Shown here: positions 3,081 through 39,293 of the stretch, one piece after another | Layout of the letters: each line of letters opens with the position of its first letter | How positions within the stretch are numbered: the first letter of the stretch is position 1 | IMG/VR virus record: IMGVR_UViG_3300042897_001737 | Location: 1-39,293 of that record | Direction: 5' to 3' (one strand) | DNA length: 39,293 nt | Source of the DNA: a virus | Position numbers and translations under genes: made by a program | The notes under the pieces: model-generated | What the model was told of the DNA's origin: nothing | Seen by the model: only the letters and a program-made list of their open reading frames with translations | The model's database searches: none

Positions 3081-3652
3081 GCGCACCATTCCCCACTGAC
3101 CTGTTCGGACACGAGACGATGCAGCGCAGCGCCGTCTTCAGCGGCGAAGAGCGCATCGAGCTTATCCGACGCTGGGGGGAGGGGCGGACCGCTTGTGTGA
3201 TCGGCTGCAACCCTTCGACCGCCGATGCTTGTAAGGATGATCCAACCACCCTTTGGTGGATAGACTGGTTCCAGCTGTTCGGATTCGGCGGCTTTCGCGC
3301 GGTCAATCTCTATCCCTTCTGCACCTCCAGTCCCGCCGAATGTCGGCAGCGCGCGAACTGGCATGTGCGTGACGACTGGTATGCGCGCGATCAGATGATC
3401 ATGACGAACCTGCCGCACGTCGCCCAGGTCGCGAAGGAAGCAGATCAGGTTTTCGTCTGCTGGGGCAACATCGCTTGGGACGACATGTGGATCGAGCATG
3501 TCGTCGAGGAGATCCAGAGCGGTGTCGAGCCCTGGCCCGACCTATGGTGCTGGGGCAAGACGAAGAGCGGCGCTCCGACCCATCCGATGGCACGGGGCAA
3601 GCATCGCATCCCGCGCGATCAGAAACCTATCCTTTGGAGGGCGGCCGCATGA
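3077..3652 (+). CDS. DUF1643 family protein
   Basis: The 191-residue protein carries the DUF1643 signature NPSTAD at residues 45-50, a following FRAVNLYPF strand (about 73-81) and a buried VFVCWG segment (about 124-129). The family is common in phages and mobile elements, and has no proven activity; the alternating alpha/beta pattern and the conserved Asn-Pro-Ser-Thr-Ala-Asp suggest a small enzyme. It overlaps both neighbours by ATGA junctions. Its fixed position between a DndC-like ATPase and a nuclease/helicase pair suggests it works with them, perhaps on nucleotides or on modified DNA; this is inference. Confidence 0.82.
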   Translation: MSAPFPTDLFGHETMQRSAVFSGEERIELIRRWGEGRTACVIGCNPSTADACKDDPTTLWWIDWFQLFGFGGFRAVNLYPFCTSSPAECRQRANWHVRDDWYARDQMIMTNLPHVAQVAKEADQVFVCWGNIAWDDMWIEHVVEEIQSGVEPWPDLWCWGKTKSGAPTHPMARGKHRIPRDQKPILWRAAA

Positions 3653-15400: not shown

Positions 15401-18400
15401 TCGTCGGGGCTGGCGCCGTTCTCGCGGTGGACCGGCGGCACTTGGCGCGGCAGCATGCCGGTCGCGTCCTCGCCGTAATTGTCGCGCACCCATTCGCTAT
15501 CCATGGGACTGACCTTGAGCAGCTGCAGCGCGCGGAACTCGGGCAGGGCATCGATGCGGGCGGTGACGGTGTCGCGCACATCCTCTTCGCGCTCGCGCCA
15601 TTCCTTCGTGACGCGGCGCTTCACCGCGTTCATCGTCTTGGCCAGCATGCGGTCCTGCGCCTCTTCGCGCGCGGTCGCGGTCAGGCCCTGATAGGCGGCA
15701 TATTCCGCCGCCGTCATCGATGGAGGCTTATCGGGGAAGAGTGCTTCGAGATTCTGCGCCGCGATCGCGTCGGCCATCTCCTCGTCCGAGGCGACCAGTC
15801 GGTCCATCACGCCGCGCACATCGTCGCTAATCTCGGAGCGCAGGCGTGAGACGCTGTTATAAAGCGAGATCATCCAGGCCTTGAAGGTCTGGAACATGCG
15901 CTGCATGCCGGGGGAGGGGGCCTTGCCCTCCATCAGGTAGCGTTCGACGCCGCGCGCCCAAAGCTCATGCGCATCGACCGGGATCTTGCCATTCTCGATC
16001 GGGTGACCGGCGGCGGCGAACCAGTCCTGCACGATCTGCCAGTCGTCGCGCACCTGCTGCGGCGCTTCCGGGTCGGCCGCGTCTTCGCGCAACTCCTCCA
16101 GCCACAGGTGGCCGGCCTCATGGAGAAAGGTGGACTGGTCCTGCGTCTGGAACAGCTCGATGATAGCGCTGGCGCTCTGGCCGCCGGGGAACAGGATGCG
16201 GCCGCGCGGGCTGTCCTCGCCCTGCATGAGCGCGTCGCCCTGCGCCTGTTCGGCGGCATAGGCTTCCACGGCGGCGCGGATATCTCGGCGGCTGGCCGCG
16301 TCCGGATCGATCCCGCGACTCTCCAGCAGCGCGCGCAGCTCATTGGCGGCATCGCGCACCGAGCGCTCGCGCGCGACCAGGTGGCGATCGCGACCGGCCA
16401 CACCTTCGGCGACCGCATCGATCAGGTCGTTGGCGCTGGGTCGCTCCGCCATCTCCGGGAAATAGCCCGCTTCCCACGCGCGGGCCGCCCAGGCGTCGGC
16501 GCTATACTCATTCTCCCCAAGGCCGCCCTCGTCGATCAGCTCGCCCTGATCCTTCACCAGCTTGCGCCGGCCGGGCTTCCCCCTGTGCCAGGCGTCGGCG
16601 CCCATGGCGCGCAGGTCGCCGCCAGTGTCGACGATGCCGCCGCCGCGCGCGATGAAGTCCATCAGCGACGGGCCCAGATTCTGCGAGGCGTCCTTCTGGC
16701 GCTTCATGACGTCGATCGCGACGTCGAGCTGGTCCGCCTTCTGGATGGCGGCGATGTTCTCCGGCAGTACCTGCCGCACCTGCAGCGCGTCATATTCGGT
16801 GCCGGTCAGCTCGCGCCCCATGCGGCTGGCGCGCGTTACGGCGCGCTGGGTCAGAAACTCGGCATTCTGCTGCGCCATCGATGGCGACATGCCGGCGGTG
16901 GTCAGCTTCTCGACGATCGACTGGAGCAGCTTTTCGCGTGGAGCGCCGAGCGCGCGGGCAGCGCGCTCCTCGTCGGCCATGCGGTCGGTCAGGTCCGCCA
17001 TGACATCGGCCATGGCCTCGTCGAAGGTCTGCGCCTCGCGACGCGACATGCCGCCAGCCGACAGGCGCATATCCTCCTTCAGCGCGTCCCATGCCGGCGT
17101 GCCAGCCAGTTCCGACACGGCCGTCTCGACCGGCAACACCCAGTCCCCGCCGGTAACGACCGCGTCGTCAATCTCGGAGCGCCAGCGGTCGAAGTCGCCG
17201 TCATAGGCATCGCTCTGCATGTAGGCCTGCACGGCCTCGGCGGGGATGTAGACATTGTCCGCGTCGGCATCGTCCGCCATCTCGCGCACCAGGTCGGCGA
17301 ACGCTACGGAGTCGCGCGCCTTCAGCTTCGACCCGGCAACAGCGTCTCCCATCTGATCGAGCGCAACTGCCTCACTCTGGGCCCGACGCGCGGCGATGAC
17401 GCGGTCAGCCATCTTGCCGGCAGCGCGCGCCGTGCGCTCGGTCGCCAGCGTGATACCGGCGGTCGCGCCAACGCCACCGACGGTAGCGACAAGAGTGGCC
17501 GCCGCCGCCTCCGGCCGTTCAGCCAGATATTCGCTGAAGGGCTTATCCGGGTTGAGTGCCGCCCACTCATTGAGATCCTGAAGGATAGTCGCGATCTGCT
17601 CGCCAGGGATCTCGGACTTGATCTGATTCCAGAAGGTTCGAAGGATCGGCGATTTGCCGGCCACATCGGAGACCAGATGCCCGATCGGCAGACGCTCTGT
17701 CGCCACTTCGATCAAGCCCTGAGACAGTGCGTAAACGCCGGCGCCCATGGTCGACAAGCCACTGGCTCGCGCCTTAACATATTCGCCGCCGCTGGTCGTG
17801 AGACCTGCCACGCTTGCGCCGGCGGTCGGCCCCGCCAGCAAGCCGACCCCGACCGACGCGAGCGAAGTAGGCACGCTTTCAATGCCCTGTAGCAGGTTGC
17901 GCGCCGTCCAGTTCTCGACCTCCGGGCGAGCGCCAGCGGCCATTTGCTGACCTTCGCGCGCGCGGCCGAGTGCAAAATCGGACACTATCTGCGGAATGGA
18001 GCGAACCCCGGCGCGTCGTTCACCCTCAGAACTGGGCGTGAGCAAACTGAGCGTGTCAGCCGCGCCGCCGATCGCCCCCCATATGCGGCTGGTCGCTTGG
18101 AATAAGCCGGCCTCCAACGATTTTCCGACATTGCGGATGCCATAGAAAGCTTTGCCTAAAAGGCTCAGACTGGAATAGTCGTCTGCGCCCGCCGCCATCC
18201 CGCGCGGGTTCTGTTCCGCCCACCGCGCGATCGCGCCATTATCCCGCTGCAGAGTCGCGGCGCGGTTTATTTGCGCCGTCCGATCGAGCGCTTGCAGATT
18301 TGCGTCCGCCTGGCTTGGCGTGACACCGAAGGTGCGCGCGAGGCCGTTCGCTTTCGCAGTTGCGTCGGGATCGGGCAGCTGGCGCAGCGCGGTCGTGCGG

Positions 18401-18480: not shown

Positions 18481-20628
18481 TTACCAGAATCCCGGGCGGC
18501 CAAGGTTGGTGACATAGGTTTGCGTGATCTGGGTTTCGTTCGGTTCGCGTCCGCCGTGATTTTTGGCCCACGATTCTACAATGCGGCTGCGCACGTTCGT
18601 GGGAATCGTCGGTACGCTGTACACCTCGCCGGGCTTCACTTCGAAACGCCGCTTGTCATTGGTGCCGTACCAGCTGCCGGGCACCGCGACGGGAAGGGTG
18701 GCGCGCTGATAGGCAATGCGCAGCTCGTCGTCGGTCGGTTGGCGCTTCCCGCCAGTCTGGGAGGTTATATAGGCCTCCATATCGTCGTAGACCTTTACGA
18801 AATTCTGCGGGTCATCTTTGGGGTCGAGCGACAGCCGGTCCGTCTTCGACCAAAAGGCGATCGTGCTGCTGATCTTCGAGCGGATGCTCACCTCTTCGCG
18901 CGACGCATATTTCGCCTGACGGCCGATCAGCGTCTTATATTCTCCCGGCGTCATCTGGTTCTGGAACGGCCGAAGGTCAGTGCGCGCGAAGGTGTCCGGG
19001 GCTACAGTGGAGAGGATGCCAAGCTCGATCGCCTTTGCCCCACCCTCATGTGGACGCTCCGCCGCCATCCGCGCGCGCAGATTGGCCTCCGCCATATTCT
19101 TCACCGACATCTGCTGCTGCGGCGACATCGAGGCGAACGACGTGCCCAGTTGCGCGACGTCAGTGAAATCGTCACCAAGCTGTACCGCGCGCGAGATCCC
19201 AGCCTCATAGGCATCATTCTCGCGGGCACTCTGAAGGCCCTTGGCGCGCTGCACGCGCCGATCGACCTCCGCCTGCACCGACCGCTTCTGTTCCGGCGTC
19301 CAGCCGGCATCGGCTGCAACGGTATCAAGGCGGCCATAGACCTCGCCCTCGTCGACGCCGTCGGCGGTACCGGACACGTTCACGCGAGCCGAAAAGTTGG
19401 AAATATATTTCTGCGTCTCAGCCGGCAGATGATCTTGCCATGTGCCGCCCCTGGCAGCGGCTTTGGCGATCGCGCCGCGCACACCCGTGCCCTTGCTCGC
19501 GCTACCTGGCCCCGCATTATAGGCTGCCGCCGCCTTGACGGGATCTCCGAACAGGCGGAGCATTTCGGCATAATAGGCTTTGCCGAGCGCGGTGTTATAT
19601 TCCGGGTCTGTCCGGTATTTCTGCTCATCCCACTTGAGCCCGGCCAATCGCGCAGCTTCAGGCGCCGTGCCGGGCATCACCTGCGCAGGGCCGACCGCAC
19701 CCTTCGGGCTGGTCAGGAACTCGCCATGCTTTCCGGTACCGCCCTCGATCGGGATGATGCCGTTCTGGAAGAGGCTGCCAGCTGAATAGGTGACGCCCTC
19801 GCCGGCCGACACATTGGGCGCCGACTGACCACCCATCACCATATCGGCGGCGGCGATCGAGAAGCGCAGTTCCATCGGCTCCTTCAGGCTGCGAGAGACG
19901 GCGAGCGTATCTTCAGCATTGAAGTCGCCGCGGTGAACGGCTGCATATCCGATCGCGTCATCCTGCCGATTTGAGGCAAGCAACTGATTGAGGACGGCCA
20001 GCCGCGTGGCGGACGTATAATTGCGTTTCGCTACAGTTAGGCCTACGCCGGTGACGCCGTGGACCTTGGCCTCCGCTTCCACGGCAGCGAGGCCCGCATC
20101 GAGATTGGCCCGGAACATGGCGTCGTCGGACCAGTTGAGGACAGCCGTATCCATGAACTGAGCCTGTTCGCCCTTGGCGATCGTCACTTGCTGCGATTTC
20201 AGCGCGCCGATGCTGTGCGACCCGATCTTGTCGACAAATCCGGATTCAATCCCGGCCGCCGCCTGATCGAAATATCGACGCATCCGGTCATTGGTCGCTT
20301 TGCCGGAAAAATCCTGACGAAGCTTCGTCAGCTGCTCGCGCGTCGACGTCGAGCCGTTGAGTGCATCGACCCCCTCGCTGGCAAGATAGGTCGTGACCAT
20401 GGGATTGGCCTCCGACTGATAGTCGAGCAGCAATTGCCGGGCCTGCGTCCGGTCGAACTCATCATTCAACGCATCCTGCTGACGTGCATAGCCAACCGCC
20501 TGACCGCCAAGCTCGCGCAGCCCGTCGCCGATCGCCTCGCCGACTGGATTGCGCACCGGCTGGACGGCGCCGACCGGACGCGCGGCGCGCTCGACGGTGT
20601 TGCCGCGATAAACAGGTACCGTGACCAT
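18481..20628 (-). CDS. internal virion protein with lytic transglycosylase domain
   Basis: A 715-residue core protein. Residues about 286-410 form an SLT-type transglycosylase: Glu295 in IIPIEGGTGK, the KGAVGPAQVMPGT loop (309-321) and AAAYNAGPG (367-375), all in the right order. The flanks are mostly helical (RQLLLDYQSEANP, VEAEAKVHG). In T7 the peptidoglycan hydrolase sits in gp16; here it is in a separate protein directly before the giant ejection protein, as in several other podoviruses. It likely opens the cell wall during DNA entry. The ATG overlaps the preceding stop by one base (TGATG at 20626-20630). Confidence 0.87.
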   Translation of the reverse strand: MVTVPVYRGNTVERAARPVGAVQPVRNPVGEAIGDGLRELGGQAVGYARQQDALNDEFDRTQARQLLLDYQSEANPMVTTYLASEGVDALNGSTSTREQLTKLRQDFSGKATNDRMRRYFDQAAAGIESGFVDKIGSHSIGALKSQQVTIAKGEQAQFMDTAVLNWSDDAMFRANLDAGLAAVEAEAKVHGVTGVGLTVAKRNYTSATRLAVLNQLLASNRQDDAIGYAAVHRGDFNAEDTLAVSRSLKEPMELRFSIAAADMVMGGQSAPNVSAGEGVTYSAGSLFQNGIIPIEGGTGKHGEFLTSPKGAVGPAQVMPGTAPEAARLAGLKWDEQKYRTDPEYNTALGKAYYAEMLRLFGDPVKAAAAYNAGPGSASKGTGVRGAIAKAAARGGTWQDHLPAETQKYISNFSARVNVSGTADGVDEGEVYGRLDTVAADAGWTPEQKRSVQAEVDRRVQRAKGLQSARENDAYEAGISRAVQLGDDFTDVAQLGTSFASMSPQQQMSVKNMAEANLRARMAAERPHEGGAKAIELGILSTVAPDTFARTDLRPFQNQMTPGEYKTLIGRQAKYASREEVSIRSKISSTIAFWSKTDRLSLDPKDDPQNFVKVYDDMEAYITSQTGGKRQPTDDELRIAYQRATLPVAVPGSWYGTNDKRRFEVKPGEVYSVPTIPTNVRSRIVESWAKNHGGREPNETQITQTYVTNLGRPGFW

Positions 20629-21131: not shown

Positions 21132-21582
21132 GGTCAGGCATCCTGAAGGGCAGAAAGGCCACGCCGCCATGCACCTCGCGCTCATCGCCGATGGCAAAAC
21201 CCCAGCGTTTGAGTGTGCGGATCGCGCGGTCATTGTCGGCCGAGACCAGATTGATGAGGGTTGGCGTCGTCTGGCGCATAAGAGCGATCACGGCAGAGCC
21301 TTCGACAAGAAAGGAACGGCCCTGCTTGTAAGCCGCATCGGTGGCCAGGAACCATGGGAGGCCAACACCTTCTACCAGGTTCATGGCGACAAGCCCGAGC
21401 ATGGCGATCGGCGCGCCGTCGGCAAGCACGGTTAACGACCATAGCGATCTGCGCCTAGCGCTGCGCAGTGCCACCTTGGGCTCGTGTCCCATGGCGAGGC
21501 ACTCGATCCGATCGATGTCCCGCATGTCGCGGGCGAGGCGGCCTATATGGCTGGGAAGGGATGGAACCAGCTCAACGGACAC
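21124..21582 (-). CDS. GNAT-like protein, T7 gp13/DUF2833 type
   Basis: A 152-residue protein with a GNAT-fold pattern: LWSLTVLADGAPIAMLGLVA strand pair, a short PWFLATDAAYKQGR segment, a helix and then NLVSADNDRAIRTLKRWGF, the closing GNAT signature. Proteins of this kind stand at the gp13 position in T7-like tail modules and are needed for virion assembly; true acetyltransferase activity is doubtful since the acetyl-CoA loop is weak. The start is GTG at 21582 with GGAGG just upstream, overlapping the end of the tail protein gene by 11 bases. Confidence 0.78.
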   Translation of the reverse strand: MSVELVPSLPSHIGRLARDMRDIDRIECLAMGHEPKVALRSARRRSLWSLTVLADGAPIAMLGLVAMNLVEGVGLPWFLATDAAYKQGRSFLVEGSAVIALMRQTTPTLINLVSADNDRAIRTLKRWGFAIGDEREVHGGVAFLPFRMPDHV

Positions 21583-23365
21583 CCTTCGCCTCCAGATAGG
21601 CGGCGGTGACGCGCATGGGCAGGGGGTTCTCCTGACGGATCACGACGGTTGTCTCGAAGTCCGCCACCTGCTCCATCTGCACACGCACGACGCCGCTATA
21701 AAGGTTTGCTTGAATGCCGACCGGCTCGGTGTCGCGGGTGACGACATCCTCCTGCAGGTCGATGCGGCGGCCAGCCGTTACGCCCAGCGTGTCGACAATG
21801 CGCAGGTGTGCGCGGCCGGTAGTCTGCTTGGTGCCGGTCGATGCACCGCCGGCCGCCTCGAAGTTGAGGGGTAGCGTTTCGACGGTCGCGACCATGGGCA
21901 GCCCGATCGTCACCTGCATCGCCTGATCCGGTATCGTAACTCGTCCATTCTCCACCGTCAGGCCCTTGGCGACGAAACCATCCGCCAGCGCCCAGACCTC
22001 CTTGCCCTCCAGATGGTCGAGTCGGTCAAATACGGTGCGCGCGTCGTCTAGCGACCAGGAGACGGCGCAGTCGAGATAGCAGGCGGCGCGGAAGTCGGCC
22101 CATTTTGCCGAGGCAAGTTGCTCCAGATAATAGACATCCTCGCCGTCGATGAAGCGCTTCACGATCAGATAGACGCGATCCTCGCCATCTTCGGGAACCG
22201 AGCAGACCGAAGTCACCTCGCCGTCGATCTCCATTTCGGTCCAGCCCCAGACCTGCTGTTCGCGCTGCCATGTGAAGGCGAGGAGCTTGCCGTCATCGCG
22301 CACCGCCCAGATGACGGAGAGCGGCTCTTCCGCATAACACCAGTCGATGATCCGGTGTCCGGTGAAGAAGTCCGGCGAAAACACGGACACGTCGTTCGAC
22401 TGGAATCCGTCGATATCGAAGCTGTAGCCCAGCGTCCGTATCTCGGCGCCGATCGCCGGCTGGAAAAAGGTCACGTTGTCGATCAGCAGCGCCTTGAGGG
22501 TGGACGCGCCGCGACCATTCTGCCGCACGACCTTGGGCGGCGGAGAGGGCGAGAGATAGTCATCGTTCGCGCCCTTCACCTGGAAGATGCTATCCGATGT
22601 CAGCGCCAGCAAACTCTGCGCGGGGATCAGCTGGTTGATCGCGTTCACTTTGCCCGAAGAGCAGGCAATCGAGAGGCTATCGTCGGCCTTGAGCGGCCGC
22701 GCCTTGTCCATGTTCTCGAAGTCGGACGATCGAGAGCCATAGATGGCATTGGGCGCGTTCTTGGTCTTTCCCACGAACAGGCGCTGCTCGAAAAAGGTCA
22801 CCGACCCGGGATAGTTGCCGACGCCATCAAATGGATTCCAGCCGACGACGGGCGCATCGGACAGGTCCGCATTGATATTGTCATCGCGGAACGTCAGCGC
22901 CGACGTCTCGCCGACGAACCCGAACGAGGCCCCGTTGTCGCTTTTGTAGACGCGGTAGAATGTAGCGCCCGTGACGCTGCCCCATACGATCTGGTTATAG
23001 TTGCGCTTGAGCCCAAGATCATTGGTAACCGTCACCGCCGCCGATGCGCGGCTCTCCTGTCCGGTCAGATCGTTGACGGCGCTAACCTTGTAGGACGCCG
23101 CCTGCGGGAAGTATGCCGCACCGCTATTGGGGGCGTCCGTGTTTGGGGTGATGGCGCTGGCGTCGATCGTCGCCGGCGCCGCAAGGGTCGGCCCGAACAA
23201 GACGGGATTGAAGGCCCAGCTATAATGGCTGGCGCGCGTCAGCTTCGTGATCGGGTGATCCTGATGCACAATGTACATGGTGTCGAACGACTGGGCATAG
23301 TCGACGTCCGGCAGCTCGACTGCATTGTAAGGCGTGCCAGCACGATAGAGACGATATCCACCCAT
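21572..23365 (-). CDS. tail tubular protein B, C-terminal part of a split protein
   Basis: The 597-residue product starts MGGYRLYRAGTPYNAVEL and continues with DYAQSFDTMYIVHQDHPIT, a hallmark segment normally found well inside podovirus tail (nozzle) proteins after an N-terminal barrel. Later segments fit that family: NPFDGVGNYPGSVTFFEQRL, YGSRSSDFENM, NAINQLIPAQSLLALTSD, WAVRDDGKLLAFTWQREQ. The missing N-terminal part is encoded by the gene just upstream, which ends with a Hint domain; the two genes share TAATG (23363-23367). The protein forms the tail tip through which DNA exits. Its start could be extended upstream by 47 codons in this frame, but that would run through the Hint coding sequence out of frame. 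Confidence 0.83.
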   Translation of the reverse strand: MGGYRLYRAGTPYNAVELPDVDYAQSFDTMYIVHQDHPITKLTRASHYSWAFNPVLFGPTLAAPATIDASAITPNTDAPNSGAAYFPQAASYKVSAVNDLTGQESRASAAVTVTNDLGLKRNYNQIVWGSVTGATFYRVYKSDNGASFGFVGETSALTFRDDNINADLSDAPVVGWNPFDGVGNYPGSVTFFEQRLFVGKTKNAPNAIYGSRSSDFENMDKARPLKADDSLSIACSSGKVNAINQLIPAQSLLALTSDSIFQVKGANDDYLSPSPPPKVVRQNGRGASTLKALLIDNVTFFQPAIGAEIRTLGYSFDIDGFQSNDVSVFSPDFFTGHRIIDWCYAEEPLSVIWAVRDDGKLLAFTWQREQQVWGWTEMEIDGEVTSVCSVPEDGEDRVYLIVKRFIDGEDVYYLEQLASAKWADFRAACYLDCAVSWSLDDARTVFDRLDHLEGKEVWALADGFVAKGLTVENGRVTIPDQAMQVTIGLPMVATVETLPLNFEAAGGASTGTKQTTGRAHLRIVDTLGVTAGRRIDLQEDVVTRDTEPVGIQANLYSGVVRVQMEQVADFETTVVIRQENPLPMRVTAAYLEAKGVR

Positions 23366-24333: not shown

Positions 24334-25010
24334 TAGCGGAACAGGCCATGGGTATCGAGCGTGCCGATTCCGACGCCACGCGCCCGAGCCCGCTCGCTCA
24401 CGAAATCATCGTCATAGTCCGGGGTGCGGTTCGCCTCGTCCGCGATCGCGCGCTGGCGCTGAATCTCCGCCATCTGCATCAGTGACCGCTGCCGGGTGGC
24501 ATCATTGAGGATCGGCATAACCAGGCGGGAGGCCAACTCCAGCACGACCAGCCGCGCGAATGAGGAGGTGAAGGACGAGACCTGCACTTCGTCCGGCAGA
24601 TATTCGAGGATCGCGTCAGGCAGGTTGGTGTAGAGGGCCTGGCCGGCAATTTGATATTCGACCATCGCGGCCAGCTGATTGGCGACGCCGACGGTGCCGG
24701 CGAAGCCGATGAGGTTGCCAGCAGAGGACGCGGTACCGGCCGGCAGGATTCGCAGCGGCGTGCCGATCCCAGCGGGCAGGGCATAGGCAAATGCCCATTC
24801 GCCCGGCCGGGTGTTGCCGATGACGGCCATGGCGACGCGAACCTTACCGAAGCCCCAGTCGTAAGCTTCGAGCAGATCGGAAATGACGCCGCGATAGAGC
24901 CGCTTGCAATGGCGGGCGCTTTGCTTCGTCTCGTCGTTGAGATCGGAGATAGTCTCCGCCGGCAGTTCGCCGAGCGCTTCATTGCAGATGTCGAGGATCG
25001 ATCGCGCCAT
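24333..25010 (-). CDS. tail tubular protein A-like (head-tail adaptor)
   Basis: The 225-residue protein MARSILDICNEALGELPAET and onward fits podovirus tail tubular protein A: helical start with NEALGELP, DETKQSARHCKRLY, LLEAYDWGFGKVR, and YLPDEVQVSSFTSSFARLVV plus a helical C-terminus. It makes the ring under the portal. The ATG at 25010 fits the family start; it lacks a Shine-Dalgarno and is preceded exactly by a 54-nt element also found before the gene at 29880-30074. An in-frame TTG at 25076 would lengthen it by 22 residues, but lies in the T-tract of the terminator upstream. Placing the gene first after a terminator implies a promoter or antitermination in the gap. Confidence 0.82.
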   Translation of the reverse strand: MARSILDICNEALGELPAETISDLNDETKQSARHCKRLYRGVISDLLEAYDWGFGKVRVAMAVIGNTRPGEWAFAYALPAGIGTPLRILPAGTASSAGNLIGFAGTVGVANQLAAMVEYQIAGQALYTNLPDAILEYLPDEVQVSSFTSSFARLVVLELASRLVMPILNDATRQRSLMQMAEIQRQRAIADEANRTPDYDDDFVSERARARGVGIGTLDTHGLFR

Positions 25011-28204: not shown

Positions 28205-29880
28205 TGCTGGCCGATCTCATTGAGAAGGGCAGCCGCCTCGACGCCGGCCTTTGCCGGCTGAGCCATCGCTGCCATGCGTTCCTGCTGTTGCTGTTGCTGC
28301 CGGTTGGCGCGGATCTGGTCGACCACCGACTGGTCGCGCATGCCCACCGCGGGCGCCGCGCTGCGCTCCCAATGATCACGCACCAGCGCGTCGCCGTCGA
28401 CCAGATCGATCGCGTCCGGTTGGAACTGGGAAACTGCGCCCACAAAGGCGAGACTGCGCTCCGTCTGGCCGGCCCCCATCATCTTCTGAGCCTGCGCCAG
28501 GACCGAGATGAACTCGATATCGAGCTCTTCGTCTTCCAGTTCTTCAGGTGGCGGCGGGAACAGGCCGCCGCGCACCGCGATGCCGAAGGCACGTTCGACC
28601 GCGACCTTGAGCATGTCGACATTGATGCTCTCGATCACCGGGCCGAGCTGCGTCATCTTCTCGTCGTTGCGCAACTGGGTTTCGAGATCGTTCAGCGGCT
28701 GGACGCCGTCGCGTTCCGTGATGGCCATGAACAGATCGGCATAGGTCGCCTCACTGATGGCGCGACGGCACTCTTGCACGTCGGCGCCCACGAGGTTGAT
28801 CGCCTGATAGGGCGCCTCGTACACGACCTCGACCTTGCCCGCGTCGACGCTCGCAAGCGCGGTGTGCTGCCCAGGCCGCATCCTGAAGTCGCGCGGTCCC
28901 TGCGTTGGGGGCTTCACGACCATGTCGGTCACTTCGCCCTTGCGCTTGGACTGGGCCTGCAACTCGCGCATGTCGGGCAGGGCGTCGCGACCAGGGCCAG
29001 TCGCCCACACGTCGGTGCCATCGACAGCCCAGCGCGCGACCCAGAAGGGTTGCTCGATATAACCCCGGTTCTCCAGGACACGTTTCTTGTCCGTGTCGCA
29101 CTCCATCCACTTGACGGAACGCCACTTCATGCCCGCGGCGGCCCAGGCGCCTTCGCGATATTCGCTGTTGGGCTCGATCAGCTGATAGACGGTGAAGGTG
29201 GCGGTATAGCTGGAGCTGTTCCACGCCGACTGCACCGACGGATGGACGAGCGACCAGTCCATCGAGCCATCGAGCTGGCGGACATAGCCGTCAACCAGCT
29301 GCCGCGTAGTCATCTGCACCCAGCGCAGCAGCGTGTCGACCTTGCCCTTGCGATTCACGTCGCAGGCAAATTCGCCGATCTTGAGGCCGATGCAGTTGAT
29401 TCCGAACTCGTCGTCATCGTCCATGATCGCCGCGGCATTGCCGAAGCGACCCAGCTGGCCATAGTTGGACCGCACGACGCGATAGAAGTTCGACCCGGCG
29501 AAGATCATCGAGAGGATCGACACGCAAGTGCCGAACCAGACCTTTGTTGCCTGTGTCGCCGTGGACTGCCCACCGCGATCGCGCTTCAGCGCAAAGTTGA
29601 ACCAGGGCCGATTGGGCGAGCTGTTGCCGCTGTAGAGGCCGCTCTCGACGTAGCGAAAGACGCGGATCGAATGGCCGTCATAGAGCGGTCGCGACTTGGG
29701 GCGGCGTCGACCCGCTTGATTGGAGATCAGCCCGTCGGTGATCGGATAGCCGGAGTAGAGGGCGATCTCGTGCCATTCGGCCTTCTCGCAATCGACCAGC
29801 GCCAGCATCGTGGCGGCACGGGCCTTCACGTGATCCTTGAGCGTGAGCTCCTTTTGAGGGTTCAAGCTCAGCGTGGCCAT
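28201..29880 (-). CDS. portal (head-tail connecting) protein
   Basis: A 559-residue protein of the podovirus head-tail connector family (PF12236-like): RAATMLALVDCEKAEWHEI, WFNFALKRDRGG, TFTVYQLIEPNSEY, WVARWAVDGTDVWATGPG (W-x-G-PG-x-x-x-LPD-x-R motif), RPGQHTALASVD, NDLETQLRNDEKMTQLGPV and a C-terminal glutamine-rich tail. It forms the dodecameric packaging vertex. The ATG overlaps the stop of the small gene before it (TAATG at 29878-29882). Confidence 0.9.
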   Translation of the reverse strand: MATLSLNPQKELTLKDHVKARAATMLALVDCEKAEWHEIALYSGYPITDGLISNQAGRRRPKSRPLYDGHSIRVFRYVESGLYSGNSSPNRPWFNFALKRDRGGQSTATQATKVWFGTCVSILSMIFAGSNFYRVVRSNYGQLGRFGNAAAIMDDDDEFGINCIGLKIGEFACDVNRKGKVDTLLRWVQMTTRQLVDGYVRQLDGSMDWSLVHPSVQSAWNSSSYTATFTVYQLIEPNSEYREGAWAAAGMKWRSVKWMECDTDKKRVLENRGYIEQPFWVARWAVDGTDVWATGPGRDALPDMRELQAQSKRKGEVTDMVVKPPTQGPRDFRMRPGQHTALASVDAGKVEVVYEAPYQAINLVGADVQECRRAISEATYADLFMAITERDGVQPLNDLETQLRNDEKMTQLGPVIESINVDMLKVAVERAFGIAVRGGLFPPPPEELEDEELDIEFISVLAQAQKMMGAGQTERSLAFVGAVSQFQPDAIDLVDGDALVRDHWERSAAPAVGMRDQSVVDQIRANRQQQQQQERMAAMAQPAKAGVEAAALLNEIGQQ

Positions 29881-33004: not shown

Positions 33005-34063
33005 TCACGCCGCCGGTGTTTCATTCGCAAATCGCAGGTCGGCGTCGGGCCCGAGCACCGCGTGCATCGCCTGCGCCAGGTCATTGGCGAAATTGTCGCG
33101 CAGATAGTTGCTGGCGAAGCTGCTGACGGCCACGGCTGTCATCGTGCCGGCATCGATGTCGAGGCGGGACGGTGCGACCCAGCGGTCATATTGCTGATCG
33201 CCGAGCTTCGCCTTGACCAGCGTGCGGATCTTCGCCGCCGCGCCGTTCTCGCGGCTGGTGTCGTGGGCCTTGGCCGGCTGAGCAGGGCGAGGCGTAGACG
33301 ACGGCGCGCTGTGCTGGACGCCGGAGCGGGCATCGCGCAGGATTTGCCCCGTCGATCGATTGATCCATGTGCACCATGCCTTGTCCCAGTCGAGCTTGCA
33401 GGCGCGACCGCTCGCCTCCGCCAGCCAGAAATTGAGGAAAGCCTCCGCCTCCGCCTCATAGGCACCGGCTGGCCACTGGCGGACCTTGGCCTTGGCAGCT
33501 GGCGGAAGGTCGGTGATGGCAGGCGGTTTCCAATCAGCTGGAATCCGACTTCCCCGATTTCTCTTCTCGGCAGGGTCTTTGGCCCCCTGGGGGGCTATAG
33601 GGGGTTTATTATTATCCTTATCAGATCCTTCCCATGACACAGCTGTGTCACCCTCCCCATGACAATCTGTCGTGGAGGGGGGCGTCATTTTGTCATGGGG
33701 GGGTGTCATTTTGTCACCCCCCCCGTGCGTCAATTTGTCATGGGGGGTGGAAGTCTTAGCCGGCGCCTCGACATGGCTGACCTTGGGCGGCTTGTAGGTT
33801 GGGAAGACAAAGCTGTTCCAACCCTGACCACCATCCTCGCGGTGCGCAGTGTCCTTCACCACGAGGCCGAGGCTTTCCAGGCGTTGGACATGGCGCTGCG
33901 CCGTCCTGACGGAGATTTCCACCTCGTCCGCCAACCGCCGCATCGACACCTGGCACTGGTCGCCCTTGGGATTCATCCAGTTGGCGATGCCGACCAGCAC
34001 CGCTTTGGTGACGGGATCGCCGGTTCGCTGCTGGCGCGCCCAGTTCTCGGCCTCCCAGCTCAT
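33005..34063 (-). CDS. replication initiator: winged helix plus DnaA domain-I-like C-terminus
   Basis: A 352-residue protein. Residues 1-85 form a helix-turn-helix of the lambda O / phage replisome-organiser type (TKAVLVGIANWMNPKGDQC, MRRLADEVEISVRTAQRHVQ, RLESLGLVVK). Residues about 100-150 are low-complexity and coded by the iteron cluster. Residues about 278-352 (VKAKLGDQQYDRWVAPSRLD, MTAVAVSSFASNYLRDNF) match DnaA domain I, which binds the replicative helicase. The design suggests that it binds its own gene and recruits host DnaB. The start overlaps the RusA stop (ATGA at 34060-34063, RusA stop inside). Confidence 0.82.
   Translation of the reverse strand: MSWEAENWARQQRTGDPVTKAVLVGIANWMNPKGDQCQVSMRRLADEVEISVRTAQRHVQRLESLGLVVKDTAHREDGGQGWNSFVFPTYKPPKVSHVEAPAKTSTPHDKLTHGGGDKMTPPHDKMTPPSTTDCHGEGDTAVSWEGSDKDNNKPPIAPQGAKDPAEKRNRGSRIPADWKPPAITDLPPAAKAKVRQWPAGAYEAEAEAFLNFWLAEASGRACKLDWDKAWCTWINRSTGQILRDARSGVQHSAPSSTPRPAQPAKAHDTSRENGAAAKIRTLVKAKLGDQQYDRWVAPSRLDIDAGTMTAVAVSSFASNYLRDNFANDLAQAMHAVLGPDADLRFANETPAA
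33605..33747. other. putative replication origin: iterons plus AT-rich stretch inside initiator gene
   Basis: Three direct repeats of a GTCA-x4-TGTCA type stand at 33684-33703, 33705-33724 and 33729-33747 (GTCAWTTTGTCA followed by a G or C run). An inverted copy lies at 33655-33671 and a perfect 16-bp palindrome TGACACAGCTGTGTCA at 33635-33650. Next to them is the AT-rich run TTTATTATTATCCTTATC (33605-33622), rare in this GC-rich DNA. The order of iterons and AT-rich DNA within the initiator gene, between its two domains, is that of lambda ori in gene O. Confidence 0.72.
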
Positions 34064-34410
34064 CCCGCAACGACCTCGATCACGACCTTGCCATATTTGC
34101 AGCGGTCACCGAACAGCACGACAGGCTGGCCGAAATGGCGGTCATCGACGCCCAGCGCCCAGGCGATCCCGTCCTGATAGGCCTTGATGCTCGCGCCCGC
34201 ATTGTCCTTGTCGGGCAGAGGGCCAGCCGGCTTGCAGTGGAAGGTGGCGACGAGGTGCAGGGACTGGCCTTCGGGGGCGTTGGCGCGCTCCGCCAGCGCA
34301 GCCGCGCGCGCCCAGCCCTTGTGGGCCTTGGTGGCCTTGTACTTGCGCATATGGTGCCCGCGGCCGTTGGGCCACAGGATCGGCGCAGGGAAGGGCAGTT
34401 CGATTTTCAT
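34060..34410 (-). CDS. RusA-like Holliday junction resolvase
   Basis: A 116-residue protein, MKIELPFPAPILWPNGRGHH start, with the RusA catalytic segment PLPDKDNAGASIKAYQDGI and VDDRHF: Asp67, Asp69, Lys76 and Asp90 match the acidic residues and lysine of RusA. It cuts four-way junctions arising in replication or recombination and can tidy DNA before packaging. The ATG at 34410 fits the family start. It ends in an ATGA overlap with the initiator gene, so the two are translated together. Confidence 0.87.
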   Translation of the reverse strand: MKIELPFPAPILWPNGRGHHMRKYKATKAHKGWARAAALAERANAPEGQSLHLVATFHCKPAGPLPDKDNAGASIKAYQDGIAWALGVDDRHFGQPVVLFGDRCKYGKVVIEVVAG

Positions 34411-34464
34411 AAGGCACCCGCTGATCTCAGCCTCGCCCCGGCGCATGGCCGGGGTCCGGTCAAA

Positions 34465-34880: not shown

Positions 34881-35588
34881 TCAGGGTGGCGCGTGGACGC
34901 GCTGTTCATGGGCCAGCCGCAGCCGTTCGACGGCGGTGGCGAAATGCTTGGGGTTGTGCTCGATCCCGATGAACGTCCGGCCGGCCTTGACCGCCGCGAC
35001 GCCGGTGGAGCCGGTGCCCATGAAGGGGTCGCAGATGATCTTGCCGGCGACGTTGGTGATGATCTTGTCCATCACCGTGTCGGGCTTCACCGTGGCGTGG
35101 CCGAATTTCTTGCCGCGCCCGACCTGGCTGCGCACGTGCCGCTTCTTGTCGGCTAGCTCGCCTTGCGGATGATGGCCGTGGTTCCAGGCGTGGAAATAGA
35201 TCTCGCTGTCCGCGACATAGTGCTTGTTCGCCATCGGCATGGGGTTCGTCTTGATCCACATGCAAAGCGCCGACCGGCTGAAGCTGCCCTTCAGATAGGC
35301 GGACAGCTCGGGCACCTGATCATTGTGGCAGAACACGATCACCGATCCGCAAAGCAGGGGATTGATGATCGAATGATCAAAGCCCTGATCAAGGCCCTCT
35401 TCAGCGATCTGGTCGGTATGGCCTCGCTGCTCCCGGAAGCTGCCGCCGCCCGAGGTGTTGAACTTGTAGGGCGGGTCCATGACCAAAGCGTCCACCCAGC
35501 CGAGGCGAGGAAACAGCGCATAAGCGTCAGCGAGATAGAGCGTGGCATGCTCCATCGTCACGACTGTCGGTGTGGTGACGTCGAGCAT
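34881..35588 (-). CDS. DNA methyltransferase (N6-adenine/N4-cytosine, motif IV first)
   Basis: A 235-residue enzyme with the catalytic motif DPPY at 38-41 and the AdoMet-binding motif DPFMGTGSTG at 187-196, so motif IV precedes motif I as in beta-class amino-methyltransferases. KPDTVMDKII before motif I is also typical. DPPY suggests N6-adenine methylation. No partner restriction enzyme is seen, so it is an orphan that may protect phage DNA or mark it for control. The start is coupled to the preceding stop (TGATG at 35586-35590); an inner ATG at 35555 is possible. Confidence 0.87.
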   Translation of the reverse strand: MLDVTTPTVVTMEHATLYLADAYALFPRLGWVDALVMDPPYKFNTSGGGSFREQRGHTDQIAEEGLDQGFDHSIINPLLCGSVIVFCHNDQVPELSAYLKGSFSRSALCMWIKTNPMPMANKHYVADSEIYFHAWNHGHHPQGELADKKRHVRSQVGRGKKFGHATVKPDTVMDKIITNVAGKIICDPFMGTGSTGVAAVKAGRTFIGIEHNPKHFATAVERLRLAHEQRVHAPP

Positions 35589-36151
35589 CAGCCGGCGGCC
35601 TCATACATCGCCTGCAATGCCGGATGCGCCTGTCCGCCAGCCGGGATCAGCACGTCGCGCTTGCCGATATGGTTGGGCGGACCCACCACACCCTTGCGCT
35701 CCAGCTCCTCGATCAGCCGCTGCGCGCTGTTATAGCCGATGCGCAGTTGACGCTGCAGCCAGGACGTCGACGCGTTCTGATGATCCACGACCAGGCTCAG
35801 CGCGGCGGTGAAGCGTTCCGCGTCATCCGCTGTCGGGGCAGGGGCGGGCCTGCTGGGTTCGGGCCGGCCGTCATGGCCCTCGTACATGTCCGGCTGGCGA
35901 CCGGGGCCGTCTTCCATGCCGAGCGCGGAGAGATAGGTTTCCAGCACAGCCTGCATTTCCTGACGATCGTGCGGCTGCATTTTGCGCAGCCGGATGATCT
36001 GGCGCATGATCTTGGGGTCGTAACCGGTCGCCTTGGCTTCCAGATAGACGTCCTTGATGTCGTCGCTGATGCCCTTCTTCTCCTCCTCCAGCCGCTCGAT
36101 GCGCTCGATCAGAAGACGAAGCTGGTCCGCTGCGATGCTGCCCTCAGACAT
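35588..36151 (-). CDS. GapR (DUF2312) domain fused to FtsK gamma winged helix
   Basis: A 187-residue two-domain DNA-binding protein. Residues 1-80 are a GapR/DUF2312 domain ([58 protein letters not shown]), which in Caulobacter clamps overtwisted DNA ahead of replication forks. A charged Pro-rich linker (81-109) leads to residues 110-170, an FtsK gamma domain: [33 protein letters not shown] and KRDVL. In FtsK this domain reads KOPS motifs. The fusion may guide a GapR-like clamp to sequence motifs. The start fits the GapR start, with GGGG upstream. It follows cro by 47 bases, so it is an early gene. Confidence 0.88.
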
Positions 36152-36198: not shown

Positions 36199-36417
36199 TT
36201 AATCTGTTGGAAAAGTCGTTGCGGTTGCGATAGGCGGGGAGATGTCCGGCAGCGAGATCGAGAATTTCTCGGCCATTTGACGGATGACTGGCACCCGCCA
36301 CGGGGGTATCCGGCCGGCTTTCTTCCAGCTCGATACCGTCGTTGGTGCGATGCCTAGCGCATTGGCGACAGCAACCGTGCCGCCAAGCGCCTCTACTATT
36401 TCTGCCGCGTTCCGCAT
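36199..36417 (-). CDS. Cro-like helix-turn-helix regulator
   Basis: The 72-residue protein [20 protein letters not shown] with [20 protein letters not shown] is a Cro/YdaS-type helix-turn-helix: the two helices and the W-x-x-x-G-x-I-P end are typical. It diverges from the S24 repressor over a shared operator region. The -10 box (TAATAT) ends seven bases before the ATG and no Shine-Dalgarno is visible, so the mRNA is predicted to be leaderless. It would repress the repressor gene and favour lytic growth. Confidence 0.85.
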
Positions 36418-36457: not shown

Positions 36458-36474
36458 ATTACGATGTCCGTCAT
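36458..36474. promoter_or_regulatory. repressor operator 2 (over repressor start)
   Basis: ATTACG, five bases, CGTCAT: one mismatch to the palindrome. It covers the ATG of the repressor gene (36464), 32 bp from operator 1. Binding here could limit repressor expression. Confidence 0.65.
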
Positions 36475-37087
36475 CGACCACCCATTACGATTTTCGCAAT
36501 GTATCCCGGTGCCGAATCATGATGAAATTGTTGCCGAGCTACGTCGTCAGTGGGCGGCCAAGATGTTCAAACAGAATGAGCTTGCTGCTCATATAGGCGT
36601 GGCGCCCGCGCGCATCGCGGAGGTGCTGAAGGGCACTCGGCGCGTTCAACAGCACGAAATGCCTGCCGTTGCTGCTTGGCTGGGCATGCTGGAAGAGAGG
36701 CCGCCAGCCGCGCGGCCGATCCCGCTTCTGGGTGAAGTGCCCGGCGGCAATTGGCGCGAGGCGATGAGCAGCGCACGGCGCTCTATCCCGTCGCCCGATC
36801 CGTCCCTGCCGTCCAGCGCCTATGCGCTCACGGTAGACGGCGACTCTATGGATCTCGTTGTCCCCGATAAATCCACGATTATTATCGACCCGACCGATCT
36901 CGATCTCTGGCCGGGTCGTTACTATGTCGTGGAAAACGGCGAGGGTGAAACCACCTTCAAGCAATACCAGGAGAGTCCAGCGCGTCTGGTTCCGTGCTCA
37001 AGCAACCCGTCGCACCGGGACATCCCGATCAGCAGCGGCGGCTTCCGCATCATCGGCCGGGTGATCTGGCGCGCTTCCCGCATGTGA
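36464..37087 (+). CDS. CI-type repressor, HTH plus S24 peptidase
   Basis: A 207-residue repressor. The N-terminal helix-turn-helix lies about 22-62 ([20 protein letters not shown]). The LexA/CI-like S24 domain has the Ser128 nucleophile in DGDSMD and Lys166 in ETTFKQYQ. The expected cleavage place is around 90-97 (GEVPGGNW), with Gly-Gly rather than the usual Ala-Gly. AAGGA lies nine bases before the ATG. It should keep the prophage silent by binding the 17-bp ATTACG operators, and be lost after RecA-dependent self-cleavage on DNA damage. Confidence 0.9.
36484..36500. promoter_or_regulatory. repressor operator 3 (inside repressor gene)
   Basis: ATTACG, five bases, CGCAAT: one mismatch to the palindrome, 26 bp from operator 2 and within the first codons of the repressor gene. 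Together with operators 1 and 2 it makes a three-site control region. Confidence 0.62.
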
Positions 37088-38690: not shown

Positions 38691-39293
38691 ATGTCGAAGA
38701 TCGAGCAATTCACCGAAGCGCTCTACCGCGCTGGCGTCCCGTATGAACGGGAGGGTGATGCCATCAACGTTCGCGGTCGTCACGTCTATCTGAGCGGTCT
38801 GACCTCGTTGCCGGAGGGCACGACCTTCAGCAACGGCGGCGGCGTCGATCTGAGCGGTCTGACCTCGCTGCCGGAGGGCGCGACCTTCAGCAACGGCGGC
38901 TACGTCGATCTGAGCGGGCTGACCTCGTTGCCGGAGGGCACGACCTTCAGCAACGGCGGCGGCGTCGATCTGCGCGGGCTGACCTCGCTGCCGGAGGGCA
39001 CGACCTTCAGCAACGGCGGCTACGTCGATCTGCGCGGGCTGACCTCGTTGCCGGAGGGCACGACCTTCAGCAACGGCGGCGGCGTCGATCTGCGCGGGCT
39101 GACCTCGCTGCCGGAGGGCACGACCTTCAGCAACGGCGGCGGCGTCGATCTGCGCGGTCTGACCTCGCTGCCGGAGGGCACGACCTTCAGCAACGGCGGC
39201 GGCGTCGATCTGAGCGGTCTGACCTCGCTGCCGGAGGGCGCGACCTTCAGCAACGGCGGCTACGTCGATCTGAGCGGGCTGACCTCGTTGCCG
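38691..39293 (+). CDS. 60-bp tandem-repeat (solenoid) protein, 3' end beyond window
   Basis: The open frame runs off the window after 201 codons. The N-terminus (MSKIEQFTEALYRAGVPYER, EGDAINVRGRH) is a short alpha/beta head. From residue 32 the protein is made of 20-residue repeats of the form V-D-L-(S/R)-G-L-T-S-L-P-E-G-(T/A)-T-F-S-N-G-G-(G/Y), eight full copies before the edge. The Leu spacing and LPEG turns suggest a leucine-rich or beta-solenoid fold like other phage LPEGxxFxNGG proteins. GGAG lies six bases before this ATG; an ATG at 38679 overlapping the previous stop is the alternative. A binding role is likely but unproved. Confidence 0.75.
   Translation, partial: MSKIEQFTEALYRAGVPYEREGDAINVRGRHVYLSGLTSLPEGTTFSNGGGVDLSGLTSLPEGATFSNGGYVDLSGLTSLPEGTTFSNGGGVDLRGLTSLPEGTTFSNGGYVDLRGLTSLPEGTTFSNGGGVDLRGLTSLPEGTTFSNGGGVDLRGLTSLPEGTTFSNGGGVDLSGLTSLPEGATFSNGGYVDLSGLTSLP
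38784..39293 (+). repeat. 60-bp tandem repeats
   Basis: Eight full 60-bp units begin at 38784, 38844 and so on to 39204, and a partial unit starts at 39264 and is cut by the window end. Units are nearly identical at the DNA level and differ at a few fixed places: TAC or GGC before GTC, AGC or CGC, GGT or GGG, TTG or CTG, ACG or GCG. Such identity points to recent expansion by slippage or unequal recombination. Confidence 0.92.

What the first reader, a model, noticed from the sequence alone, without database searches (positions are those of the whole stretch)
35588..36151. GapR-type DNA clamp fused to an FtsK gamma domain in a phage early gene
Residues 1-80 follow GapR/DUF2312 and residues 110-170 follow the KOPS-reading FtsK gamma winged helix, within one uninterrupted frame joined by a proline-rich linker. 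GapR senses overtwisted DNA and FtsK gamma reads polar 8-mers. One protein with both could place a topology-sensing clamp at specific sites, affect replication fork progress, or compete with host FtsK or GapR. I know of each domain singly in phages, but not of this pairing as a described system.
Basis: partly seen in the sequence, partly recalled or inferred. Interest (0 to 1): 0.75.

Follow-up and report, generated by a model that had tools for sequence, protein, structure and literature searches.

The report
Phage DNA clamp with sequence reader
A bacterial virus makes one protein that joins a ring-like DNA clamp to the small domain bacteria use to read direction signs on their chromosomes, and related viruses appear to have put the same reader onto several other DNA clamps.

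Summary
Window 35588-36151, minus strand, is a 187-aa gene with GapR_DNA-bd at residues 7-78 (E 3.7e-35) and FtsK_gamma at 110-169 (E 8.7e-24). It is not an assembly join: the architecture recurs at 41-98% identity in other phage contigs, in a Sphingobium prophage, and, in reverse order, in three contigs plus Ruegeria and Rhodobacter phages. Both domains are under purifying selection; most GapR DNA-contact residues and the KOPS-reading residues of gamma persist. Beyond the finding, phages also fuse FtsK_gamma to RdgC (5 proteins) and to probable sliding-clamp-like proteins in actinophages annotated as FtsK-like, RusA or clamp; a terminase case is published. One partner is a PIF1-like helicase and four are unidentified. 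GGGNAGGG is enriched over synonymous shuffles in GapR-gamma phages (88 vs 50) but not in GapR-only phages (88 vs 85.5), nor in the reverse-order ones. Its polarity also occurs in GapR-only phages and matches a host chromosome, so it may reflect host FtsK. Best reading: a clamp delivered to KOPS-like sites during phage replication. No binding was tested. No description of the pairing was found in the searches made.

The parts
35588..36151 (-). GapR-FtsK gamma fusion gene, 187 aa, ATG at 36151, stop codon 35588-35590
   Evidence: translation; Pfam
35918..36133 (-). GapR_DNA-bd domain (residues 7-78)
   Evidence: 7 of 8 DNA-contact positions of Caulobacter GapR stay basic
35825..35917 (-). proline-rich linker (residues 79-109), low pLDDT in its first part
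35645..35824 (-). FtsK_gamma winged helix (residues 110-169)
   Evidence: the counterparts of E. coli R1300, E1303, E1306 are R, E, E
36199..36417 (-). Cro/YdaS-like regulator just upstream
   Evidence: P22_Cro E 2.9e-7, YdaS 4e-8
36464..37087 (+). divergent CI-like repressor with Peptidase_S24 domain
34881..35588 (-). N6/N4 DNA methyltransferase, start overlaps the fusion's stop (TGATG)
34060..34446 (-). RusA-like resolvase
   Evidence: phrog_34, E 2.8e-9; no Pfam hit at 0.01
33005..34063 (-). replication initiator (O-like) with a C-terminal DnaA_N-like domain
2433..2440 (+). GGGNAGGG site
3176..3183 (+). GGGNAGGG site
10098..10105 (+). GGGNAGGG site
15541..15548 (+). GGGNAGGG site
15911..15918 (+). 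GGGNAGGG site
18691..18698 (+). GGGNAGGG site
21553..21560 (+). GGGNAGGG site
21617..21624 (+). GGGNAGGG site
24774..24781 (+). GGGNAGGG site
28975..28982 (+). GGGNAGGG site
34388..34395 (+). GGGNAGGG site
35836..35843 (+). GGGNAGGG site, inside the linker-coding part of the fusion gene
8725..8732 (-). GGGNAGGG site, minority strand
33651..33658 (-). GGGNAGGG site, minority strand

Best explanation
It is a sequence-addressed DNA clamp made early in infection. The GapR half assembles into a ring or clamp around double-stranded DNA, and the gamma winged helix on a flexible linker reads GGGNAGGG-type polar sites, as it does in FtsK, so that clamps are seeded at marked, oriented places on phage DNA (and, since the same sites occur there, on host DNA). 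Held there, the GapR ring would bind overtwisted DNA at forks and transcription units and help host gyrase or topo IV relieve it during rapid phage replication. Shown here: both domains, their conserved contact residues, purifying selection, recurrence in both domain orders, a replication-module setting, and extra GGGNAGGG sites in the GapR-gamma phages. Inferred: ring assembly of the fusion, binding to these sites, loading order, early expression, and the benefit to replication.
For: Pfam domains. GapR contact positions basic in 7 of 8 (5-7 of 8 across 18 fusions), Y82 tetramer-interface residue kept in 18 of 18; gamma N-R-E-E kept exactly in 14 of 18, with only the R1300 position changed (K, G, Q, K) in the other 4 (residue roles from passages of PMC7498317 and PMC2680272; N1296 recalled). 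Gamma model matches KOPS-bound 2ve9. Both orders, and a double gamma in Rhodobacter phages. Gamma present once in 14 of 14 fusion contigs and in 0 of 33 GapR-only contigs. Methyltransferase and/or initiator neighbours in 8 of 13 fusion viral loci. GGGNAGGG 88 vs 50.2 expected from synonymous shuffles in 8 GapR-gamma lineages, vs 88 and 85.5 in 20 GapR-only contigs; Mann-Whitney p 0.011; top of 56 rearranged motifs, z 5.9, vs 0.4 in GapR-only. Window 12 plus: 2 minus. Gamma also fused to RdgC and to probable clamp-like proteins.
Against: No binding was measured. The three reverse-order phages show no site excess (9 vs 11.6), and adding them gives p 0.10. Four of the 8 GapR-gamma lineages are at ratios 1.08-1.45, within the control range. 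The Ruegeria phage has 0 sites in genes vs 6.8 expected and RcKvothe 7 vs 9.4. GapR-only contigs also exceed a Markov null (118 vs 67.5), are polar (74 vs 36.4) and show similar site conservation (3 of 11 vs 52 of 499). Two GapR-gamma contigs, G007 (10 and 15) and G010 (6 and 3), are hardly polar. The Sphingobium host is itself polar (11 plus: 70 minus in 340 kb), with the prophage co-oriented, so host FtsK could explain the sites. K60 of GapR is not basic in the window protein. Sphingomonad FtsK has K at the R1300 position (sequences), so the exact motif is not assured.
Confidence: 0.45

Rival explanations
1. Host-directed inhibitor or modulator: the fusion occupies KOPS or the XerD surface and so blocks host FtsK loading or Xer recombination, delaying division while the phage replicates; GapR supplies avidity.
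For: Gamma uses the same surface for KOPS and XerD (PMC5052618, passages and section 4). Host sites match the phage sites: polar in Sphingobium sp. Leaf26. Position beside cro.
Against: Does not by itself explain why gamma is joined to RdgC or clamp-like proteins in other phages, nor the site excess in GapR-gamma phage genomes.
Confidence: 0.2
2. Gamma is only a generic DNA-binding extension that raises affinity of a phage GapR; specificity for GGGNAGGG is not used, and the sites in the phage are there for host FtsK when the phage is a prophage.
For: GapR-only phages also show polar sites. Site conservation does not separate the two groups. Ruegeria, Rhodobacter and the three reverse-order phages lack a site excess.
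Against: Residues needed for KOPS reading are conserved and the domain is under purifying selection. Site excess over synonymous shuffles is seen in GapR-gamma but not GapR-only phages.
Confidence: 0.25
3. It marks phage DNA for packaging or late transcription, as the small-terminase gamma fusion of Sam46 may do, or as the T4 DsbA homologue of GapR is thought to do.
For: Published TerS-gamma fusion (PMC8190038, passages) and DsbA-GapR homology (PMC7824862, passages). Small and large terminase lie about 3 kb downstream on the same strand, and also downstream in several relatives.
Against: The nearest genes are repressor, methyltransferase, resolvase and initiator, and the window's own small terminase is a separate gene.
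Confidence: 0.08

Closest known systems
GapR (Caulobacter CC_3319; Pfam PF10073, DUF2312/UPF0335)
   Same: Full-length GapR domain with most DNA-contact residues and the tetramer-interface residue Y82 kept.
   Different: Chromosomal Caulobacter GapR is 89 aa (PMC7373187 passages); here a linker and gamma domain follow.
FtsK/SpoIIIE gamma domain (Pfam PF09397; 2ve8, 2ve9, 2j5p)
   Same: Sequence, predicted fold and KOPS-reading residues.
   Different: No motor or membrane domain found.
PHROG 4212 (unnamed; Ruegeria phage 45A6 protein annotated 'cell division protein FtsK')
   Same: Holds both gamma and GapR.
   Different: Reverse order, 351 aa, with an extra N-terminal region.
Bacillus phage Sam46/Sam112 small terminase with N-terminal FtsK_gamma (PMC8190038, passages read)
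   Same: A phage puts FtsK gamma on another DNA-handling protein; its authors note that the role of lone phage gamma genes is unknown.
   Different: Partner is a terminase, host is Bacillus.
Cluster J mycobacteriophage FtsK proteins, such as Omega gp203 (PMC3706429, passages read)
   Same: Phage-encoded FtsK relatives with a C-terminal gamma region.
   Different: They keep the FtsK motor domain, and their gamma is described as distinct.
RdgC-gamma proteins of Vibrio and Pseudomonas phages
   Same: C-terminal gamma on a DNA-binding recombination protein; RdgC ring structure is recalled.
   Different: Partner is unrelated to GapR; annotations mention only RdgC or 'exonuclease recombination-associated'.
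Actinophage phrog_12598 / phrog_6152 proteins (Gordonia RayTheFireFly gp60, Mycobacterium Langerak gp49)
   Same: C-terminal gamma on a probable sliding-clamp-like body.
   Different: Clamp assignment is weak to moderate: phmmer E 0.0032, profile only E 0.12, no Pfam clamp hit, Foldseek best E 1.9e-4 from a low-confidence model.

Membership tests
GapR family (PF10073) | GapR DNA-binding domain over the curated cut-off | tested here: met
   119.8 bits vs cut-off 22.6
GapR family (PF10073) | Basic residues that contact DNA (K34, K42, K49, K56, K59, K60, R63, K66) | tested here: met
   7 of 8 basic in the window protein; K60 is Q (residues from PMC7498317)
GapR family (PF10073) | Tetrameric ring or clamp on overtwisted DNA | not testable with these tools
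   only a monomer model was made; interface residue Y82 kept
GapR nucleoid protein equivalog (NF052541) | Score over NCBIfam equivalog cut-off | tested here: not met
   83.1 bits vs 140: a GapR-domain protein, not the host GapR equivalog; the broader subfamily PRK13694 is met (114.3 vs 94)
FtsK gamma domain (PF09397) | Gamma domain over the curated cut-off and fold match | tested here: met
   83.5 bits vs 30.6; 2ve9 chains at TMt 0.90-0.93
FtsK gamma domain (PF09397) | KOPS-reading residues R1300, E1303, E1306 | tested here: met
   R, E, E in the window protein (roles from PMC2680272)
FtsK gamma domain (PF09397) | Binding to GGGNAGGG DNA | not testable with these tools
   only site counts were made
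FtsK/SpoIIIE translocase | Motor (RecA-like ATPase) domain | tested here: not met
   187 aa, no such Pfam hit
PHROG 4212 | Profile match across gamma and GapR parts | tested here: inconclusive
   E 3.1e-46 with two stretches; best one covers only the GapR end 276-352 of 353, and domain order differs

The most novel reading that the evidence does not exclude
FtsK gamma is a portable address module that phages have repeatedly put on DNA-encircling or DNA-tracking proteins (GapR in both orders, RdgC, a sliding-clamp-like protein, a PIF1-like helicase, small terminase), creating rings that load at chosen, oriented sites without an ATP-driven loader; the phages keep matching polar sites in their own genomes.
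Probability: 0.3. Interest if true: 0.85.

Novelty: new variant of a known kind. Interest (0 to 1): 0.62.

Why it matters
If it works as proposed, it is a natural way to send a topology-sensing DNA clamp to chosen oriented sites. It would give a testable role to phage gamma domains, whose function the Sam46 authors call unknown (PMC8190038), and it links several phage proteins now filed under FtsK, RdgC or RusA. GapR is already used to map positive supercoiling (PMC8360656, abstract start in a search listing), so an addressed version could be a useful tool.

Tried and rejected
Sequencing error or chance join: rejected.

Plus-strand reading of the same coordinates: a different product, not searched further.

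'Polar GGGNAGGG proves that the fusion uses these sites': rejected after controls. GapR-only phages are polar too, the Sphingobium chromosome is polar with the prophage co-oriented, and site conservation did not separate the groups (fusion 14 of 50 vs 207 of 1213 for other motifs, p 0.056; GapR-only 3 of 11 vs 52 of 499, p 0.10; pairs share genomes, so these counts are not independent). The window-only version of that test looked stronger (for example 4 of 6 vs 33 of 163 against G014) and was not upheld over all pairs. The first null (Markov) overstated the excess; the synonymous-codon null is the one used.

'Gamma partners are always rings': rejected as an absolute rule. One PIF1-like helicase and four phage proteins with no recognised partner (L204, L205; L336, L339).

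Structure model of the clamp-like protein: mean pLDDT 56.1, so its Foldseek result is support, not proof. Model of the window protein: mean pLDDT 73.9, pTM 0.40; the 12 PDB matches at E <= 0.001 are all FtsK gamma.

Separate gamma capture events: the 57-column gamma tree (45 rows, after I dropped near-copies) cannot resolve most forks. It separates the clamp-type group (100/100) and joins all but one of the GapR-linked gammas with sphingomonad FtsK (99/99), the exception being the first gamma of RcKvothe, a very long branch; RdgC gammas are scattered.

A scan of IMG/VR with the RcKvothe protein gave only two GapR-part relatives; not followed.

Full report
WHAT IS THERE. Window 35588-36151 on the minus strand encodes one uninterrupted 187-aa protein. 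Pfam finds GapR_DNA-bd at residues 7-78 (E 3.7e-35) and FtsK_gamma at 110-169 (E 8.7e-24), both far above cut-off. NCBIfam and solved-structure searches name the same two families, though the NCBIfam GapR equivalog cut-off is not reached. The window is a virus record of 39,293 bases with one match to each family. An AlphaFold2 model (mean pLDDT 73.9, pTM 0.40) gives a helical GapR part, a low-confidence linker and a winged helix. Its gamma part matches P. aeruginosa FtsK gamma structures, including KOPS-bound 2ve9, at rmsd 0.7-1.6 over 58-63 columns, and E. coli 2j5p at 2.3. The GapR part gave no Foldseek match at E <= 0.001; its identification rests on sequence.

SETTING. Upstream lie a Cro/YdaS-like gene and, divergently, a CI-like S24 repressor; downstream lie an N6/N4 methyltransferase whose start overlaps the fusion's stop, a RusA-like resolvase and an O-like initiator with a DnaA_N-like domain, then small and large terminase. 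I read that as an early replication module of a temperate phage (inference). Methyltransferase and/or initiator neighbours recur in 8 of the 13 fusion viral loci compared (L001-L006, L012, L167); L007, L011, L020, L030 and L063 showed none of the window's neighbours.

RECURRENCE. A home-made profile search over 167 loci found 17 GapR-gamma ORFs (duplicates of contigs and of the window included), 3 gamma-GapR ORFs, 6 gamma-only ORFs (full-size, host FtsK) and 148 GapR-only ORFs. Gamma was then searched in 50 whole records: it occurs once in each of 14 fusion viral contigs, in 0 of 33 GapR-only viral contigs, and in all 3 cellular genomes, one of which (Sphingobium sp. Leaf26, by locus L086) has a full-size FtsK plus a second gamma in a 221-aa ORF. 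That ORF lies in a prophage at contig 1: 476,785-527,128, located with the matching IMG/VR contig. In 396 Sphingomonadales genomes the profile of the fusion matched over both domains in 3 among the rows listed, one of them the Leaf26 centre itself (list truncated, best first; the reverse order would be missed). In the phage collection, Ruegeria phage 45A6 has gamma then GapR (351 aa, PHROG 4212), and Rhodobacter phages RcKvothe and RcOceanus have gamma, gamma, GapR (441 aa).

CONSTRAINT. Between the window gene and six relatives, dN/dS is 0.038-0.166 for GapR and 0.035-0.351 for gamma; the linker is looser, 0 to 0.683. Over 18 fusion proteins, 5 to 7 of 8 GapR DNA-contact positions are basic (16 of 18 have 7), and Y82 of the tetramer interface and R65 are kept in all 18. 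At the gamma positions N1296, R1300, E1303, E1306, the N and both E are kept in all 18, and R1300 is R in 14 of 18 and K, G, Q or K in four (L167, L011, L020, L063) (for RcKvothe the second gamma was the one aligned). Sphingomonad FtsK itself has K there. GapR residue roles are from passages of PMC7498317 and PMC7373187; gamma R1300, E1303 and E1306 from passages of PMC2680272; N1296 is recalled. The XerD surface of gamma overlaps the KOPS surface (PMC5052618), so conservation cannot tell DNA reading from XerD binding.

GAMMA ON OTHER PROTEINS. tblastn with the gamma part matched 368 of 50,697 phage records. From the phage searches I picked 21 proteins or fragments for their annotation or spread, so their proportions are not those of the collection: RdgC-gamma 5 (L200, L201, L207; L208, L210; RdgC E 7.9e-29 to 7.8e-108); GapR 3 (L168, L169, and L209, a near-copy of L169); clamp-like 3 (L202, L203, L206); PIF1-like helicase 1 (L335, PIF1 E 9e-24; an unnamed faecal contig); FtsK motor 4 by eye only, probably cellular fragments (L332, L333, L334, L338); no recognised partner 4 (L204, L205, L336, L339); one in short separate frames (L337). 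The clamp-like call: RayTheFireFly gp60 is annotated as sliding clamp by its depositors, and phmmer hits mycobacterial beta clamp at E 0.0032 (species names recalled, the output says beta sliding clamp), but a profile of near-identical sequences scored only 0.12 and Pfam found no clamp. PHROGs calls the family RusA-like. A low-confidence model of the related Mycobacterium family (mean pLDDT 56.1) nevertheless gave DNA polymerase III beta / sliding clamp entries as 48 of the 50 listed Foldseek rows, best E 1.9e-4, low TM scores 0.24-0.36; the other two rows were a mismatch-repair complex chain and FtsK gamma. Relatives apparently without gamma exist: L225-L229 match only the clamp-like part and no ORF of these loci had a gamma hit. 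A published case is the Bacillus phage Sam46 small terminase (PMC8190038, passages). That RdgC, beta clamp and small terminase form rings is recalled; for GapR it is stated in PMC7498317 (passages) and PMC6853979 (abstract start).

SITES. GGGNAGGG occurs 12 times on the plus and 2 on the minus strand of the window. I compared 8 GapR-gamma lineages with 20 GapR-only contigs (20 of the 21 that are 29 kb or longer, out of 33; up to 40 kb each; hosts unknown, G+C 0.43-0.67). Dropped before the count: near-copies G001, G002 and G003 of the window (14 vs 5.9, 9 vs 3.4 and 11 vs 4.9), and G008, a shorter relative of G009 that was not fetched. Against synonymous-codon shuffles of predicted ORFs, GapR-gamma lineages had 88 sites vs 50.2 expected, GapR-only 88 vs 85.5 (Mann-Whitney on per-genome ratios p 0.011). 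The excess is uneven: ratios 2.67 (window), 1.9, 1.32, 1.08, 1.59, 3.05, 1.3 and 1.45. The three gamma-GapR contigs had 9 vs 11.6, and including them p is 0.10; the Ruegeria phage had 0 vs 6.8, RcKvothe 7 vs 9.4, one Pseudomonas RdgC-gamma phage 14 vs 8.0, and one Vibrio RdgC-gamma phage 0 vs 0.8. Among 56 rearrangements of the motif, GGGNAGGG had the highest z in GapR-gamma phages (5.9; next 2.1) and ranked first also in GapR-only phages, but at z 0.4. Under the cruder Markov null GapR-only contigs also exceed expectation, 118 vs 67.5. Strand polarity exceeded shuffles in both groups: 48 vs 18.1 and 74 vs 36.4. Conservation of sites between related phages did not separate the groups. The Sphingobium sp. 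Leaf26 chromosome is polar for the motif (11 plus, 70 minus in 340 kb; rearranged control GGGANGGG 21 and 43), and its prophage is co-oriented, 1 and 13. So KOPS-like sites that gamma could read are present in these phages, oriented in most. Part of that is expected of any prophage living under host FtsK, and only the extra number is specific to GapR-gamma phages.

MECHANISM. In FtsK three gamma domains bind one KOPS and the motor assembles to one side of it (PMC5052618, passage). A GapR tetramer carrying four gamma domains on flexible linkers could do the same for a passive clamp. GapR binds overtwisted DNA and stimulates gyrase and topo IV (PMC8510090, abstract start in a search listing). 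I therefore favour a clamp addressed to KOPS-like sites that supports phage replication (0.45), ahead of unused specificity (0.25), host-directed interference with FtsK or Xer (0.2), and packaging or late transcription (0.08).

LITERATURE. Searches, with papers found: GapR+phage, 25, 20 listed; 'FtsK gamma'+phage, 7; XerD+FtsK+'gamma domain'+'structural basis', 4; RdgC+phage+FtsK, 1; GapR+DNA+overtwisted+residues, 13, 10 listed; KOPS+temperate+phage, 18, 10 listed; FtsK+KOPS+R1300, 2; 'FtsKgamma', 20; DUF2312, 1. In the listings and the passages I read, nothing describes GapR joined to FtsK gamma, RdgC-gamma or clamp-gamma; I did not read every listed paper, no search was made for clamp-gamma as such, and the library is only the open part of PMC. 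An Erythrobacter phage paper reports GapR in phages as new (PMC12185513, passages), and a jumbo-phage survey finds that T4 DsbA is a GapR homologue (PMC7824862, passages).

VERDICT. The architecture is a new variant built of known domains, recurrent and under selection, with a plausible and directly testable function. The wider pattern of gamma on DNA clamps is the more interesting part and rests on mixed evidence: strong for GapR and RdgC, moderate for the clamp-like proteins.

Noticed in passing
L206:1664-2731, L202:1676-2710, L203:1715-2761, L214:3001-4065: Actinophage genes annotated 'FtsK-like DNA translocase', 'RusA-like resolvase' or 'sliding clamp beta' look like a sliding-clamp-like body with a C-terminal FtsK gamma; the translocase name is probably wrong because Pfam finds no motor domain in the three scanned.
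   Followed up: partly
L200:1418-2683, L201:1559-2659, L207:1442-2662, L208:1532-2692, L210:1409-2707: RdgC with a C-terminal FtsK gamma in Vibrio and Pseudomonas phages.
   Followed up: partly
L335:339-2432: PIF1-like helicase with an FtsK gamma towards its C-terminus in an unnamed faecal phage contig.
   Followed up: no
L169:4734-6059 and L209:3668-4993: Rhodobacter phage proteins with two gamma domains followed by GapR; the first gamma is very divergent.
   Followed up: partly
L089, L091, L094, L099, L108, L133 (ORFs between 128 and 2912, minus strand): In 6 of 80 fetched genome loci a full-size ftsK begins about 3-3.5 kb from the GapR gene, four of them Novosphingobium.
   Followed up: no
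window 38783-39293: A 60-base tandem repeat, 8.5 copies, 94% match, at the right end of the record.
   Followed up: no
window 33005-34063 (-): Replication initiator with an N-terminal helix-turn-helix and a C-terminal DnaA_N-like domain, E 1.4e-6.
   Followed up: no
window 766-5839 (+): DUF5131, PAPS reductase, an unknown and an SNF2-related helicase gene in a row at the left end.
   Followed up: no
L019:4794-5500: Two neighbouring GapR-like ORFs in different frames, 39% and 72% identical to the window's GapR domain.
   Followed up: no
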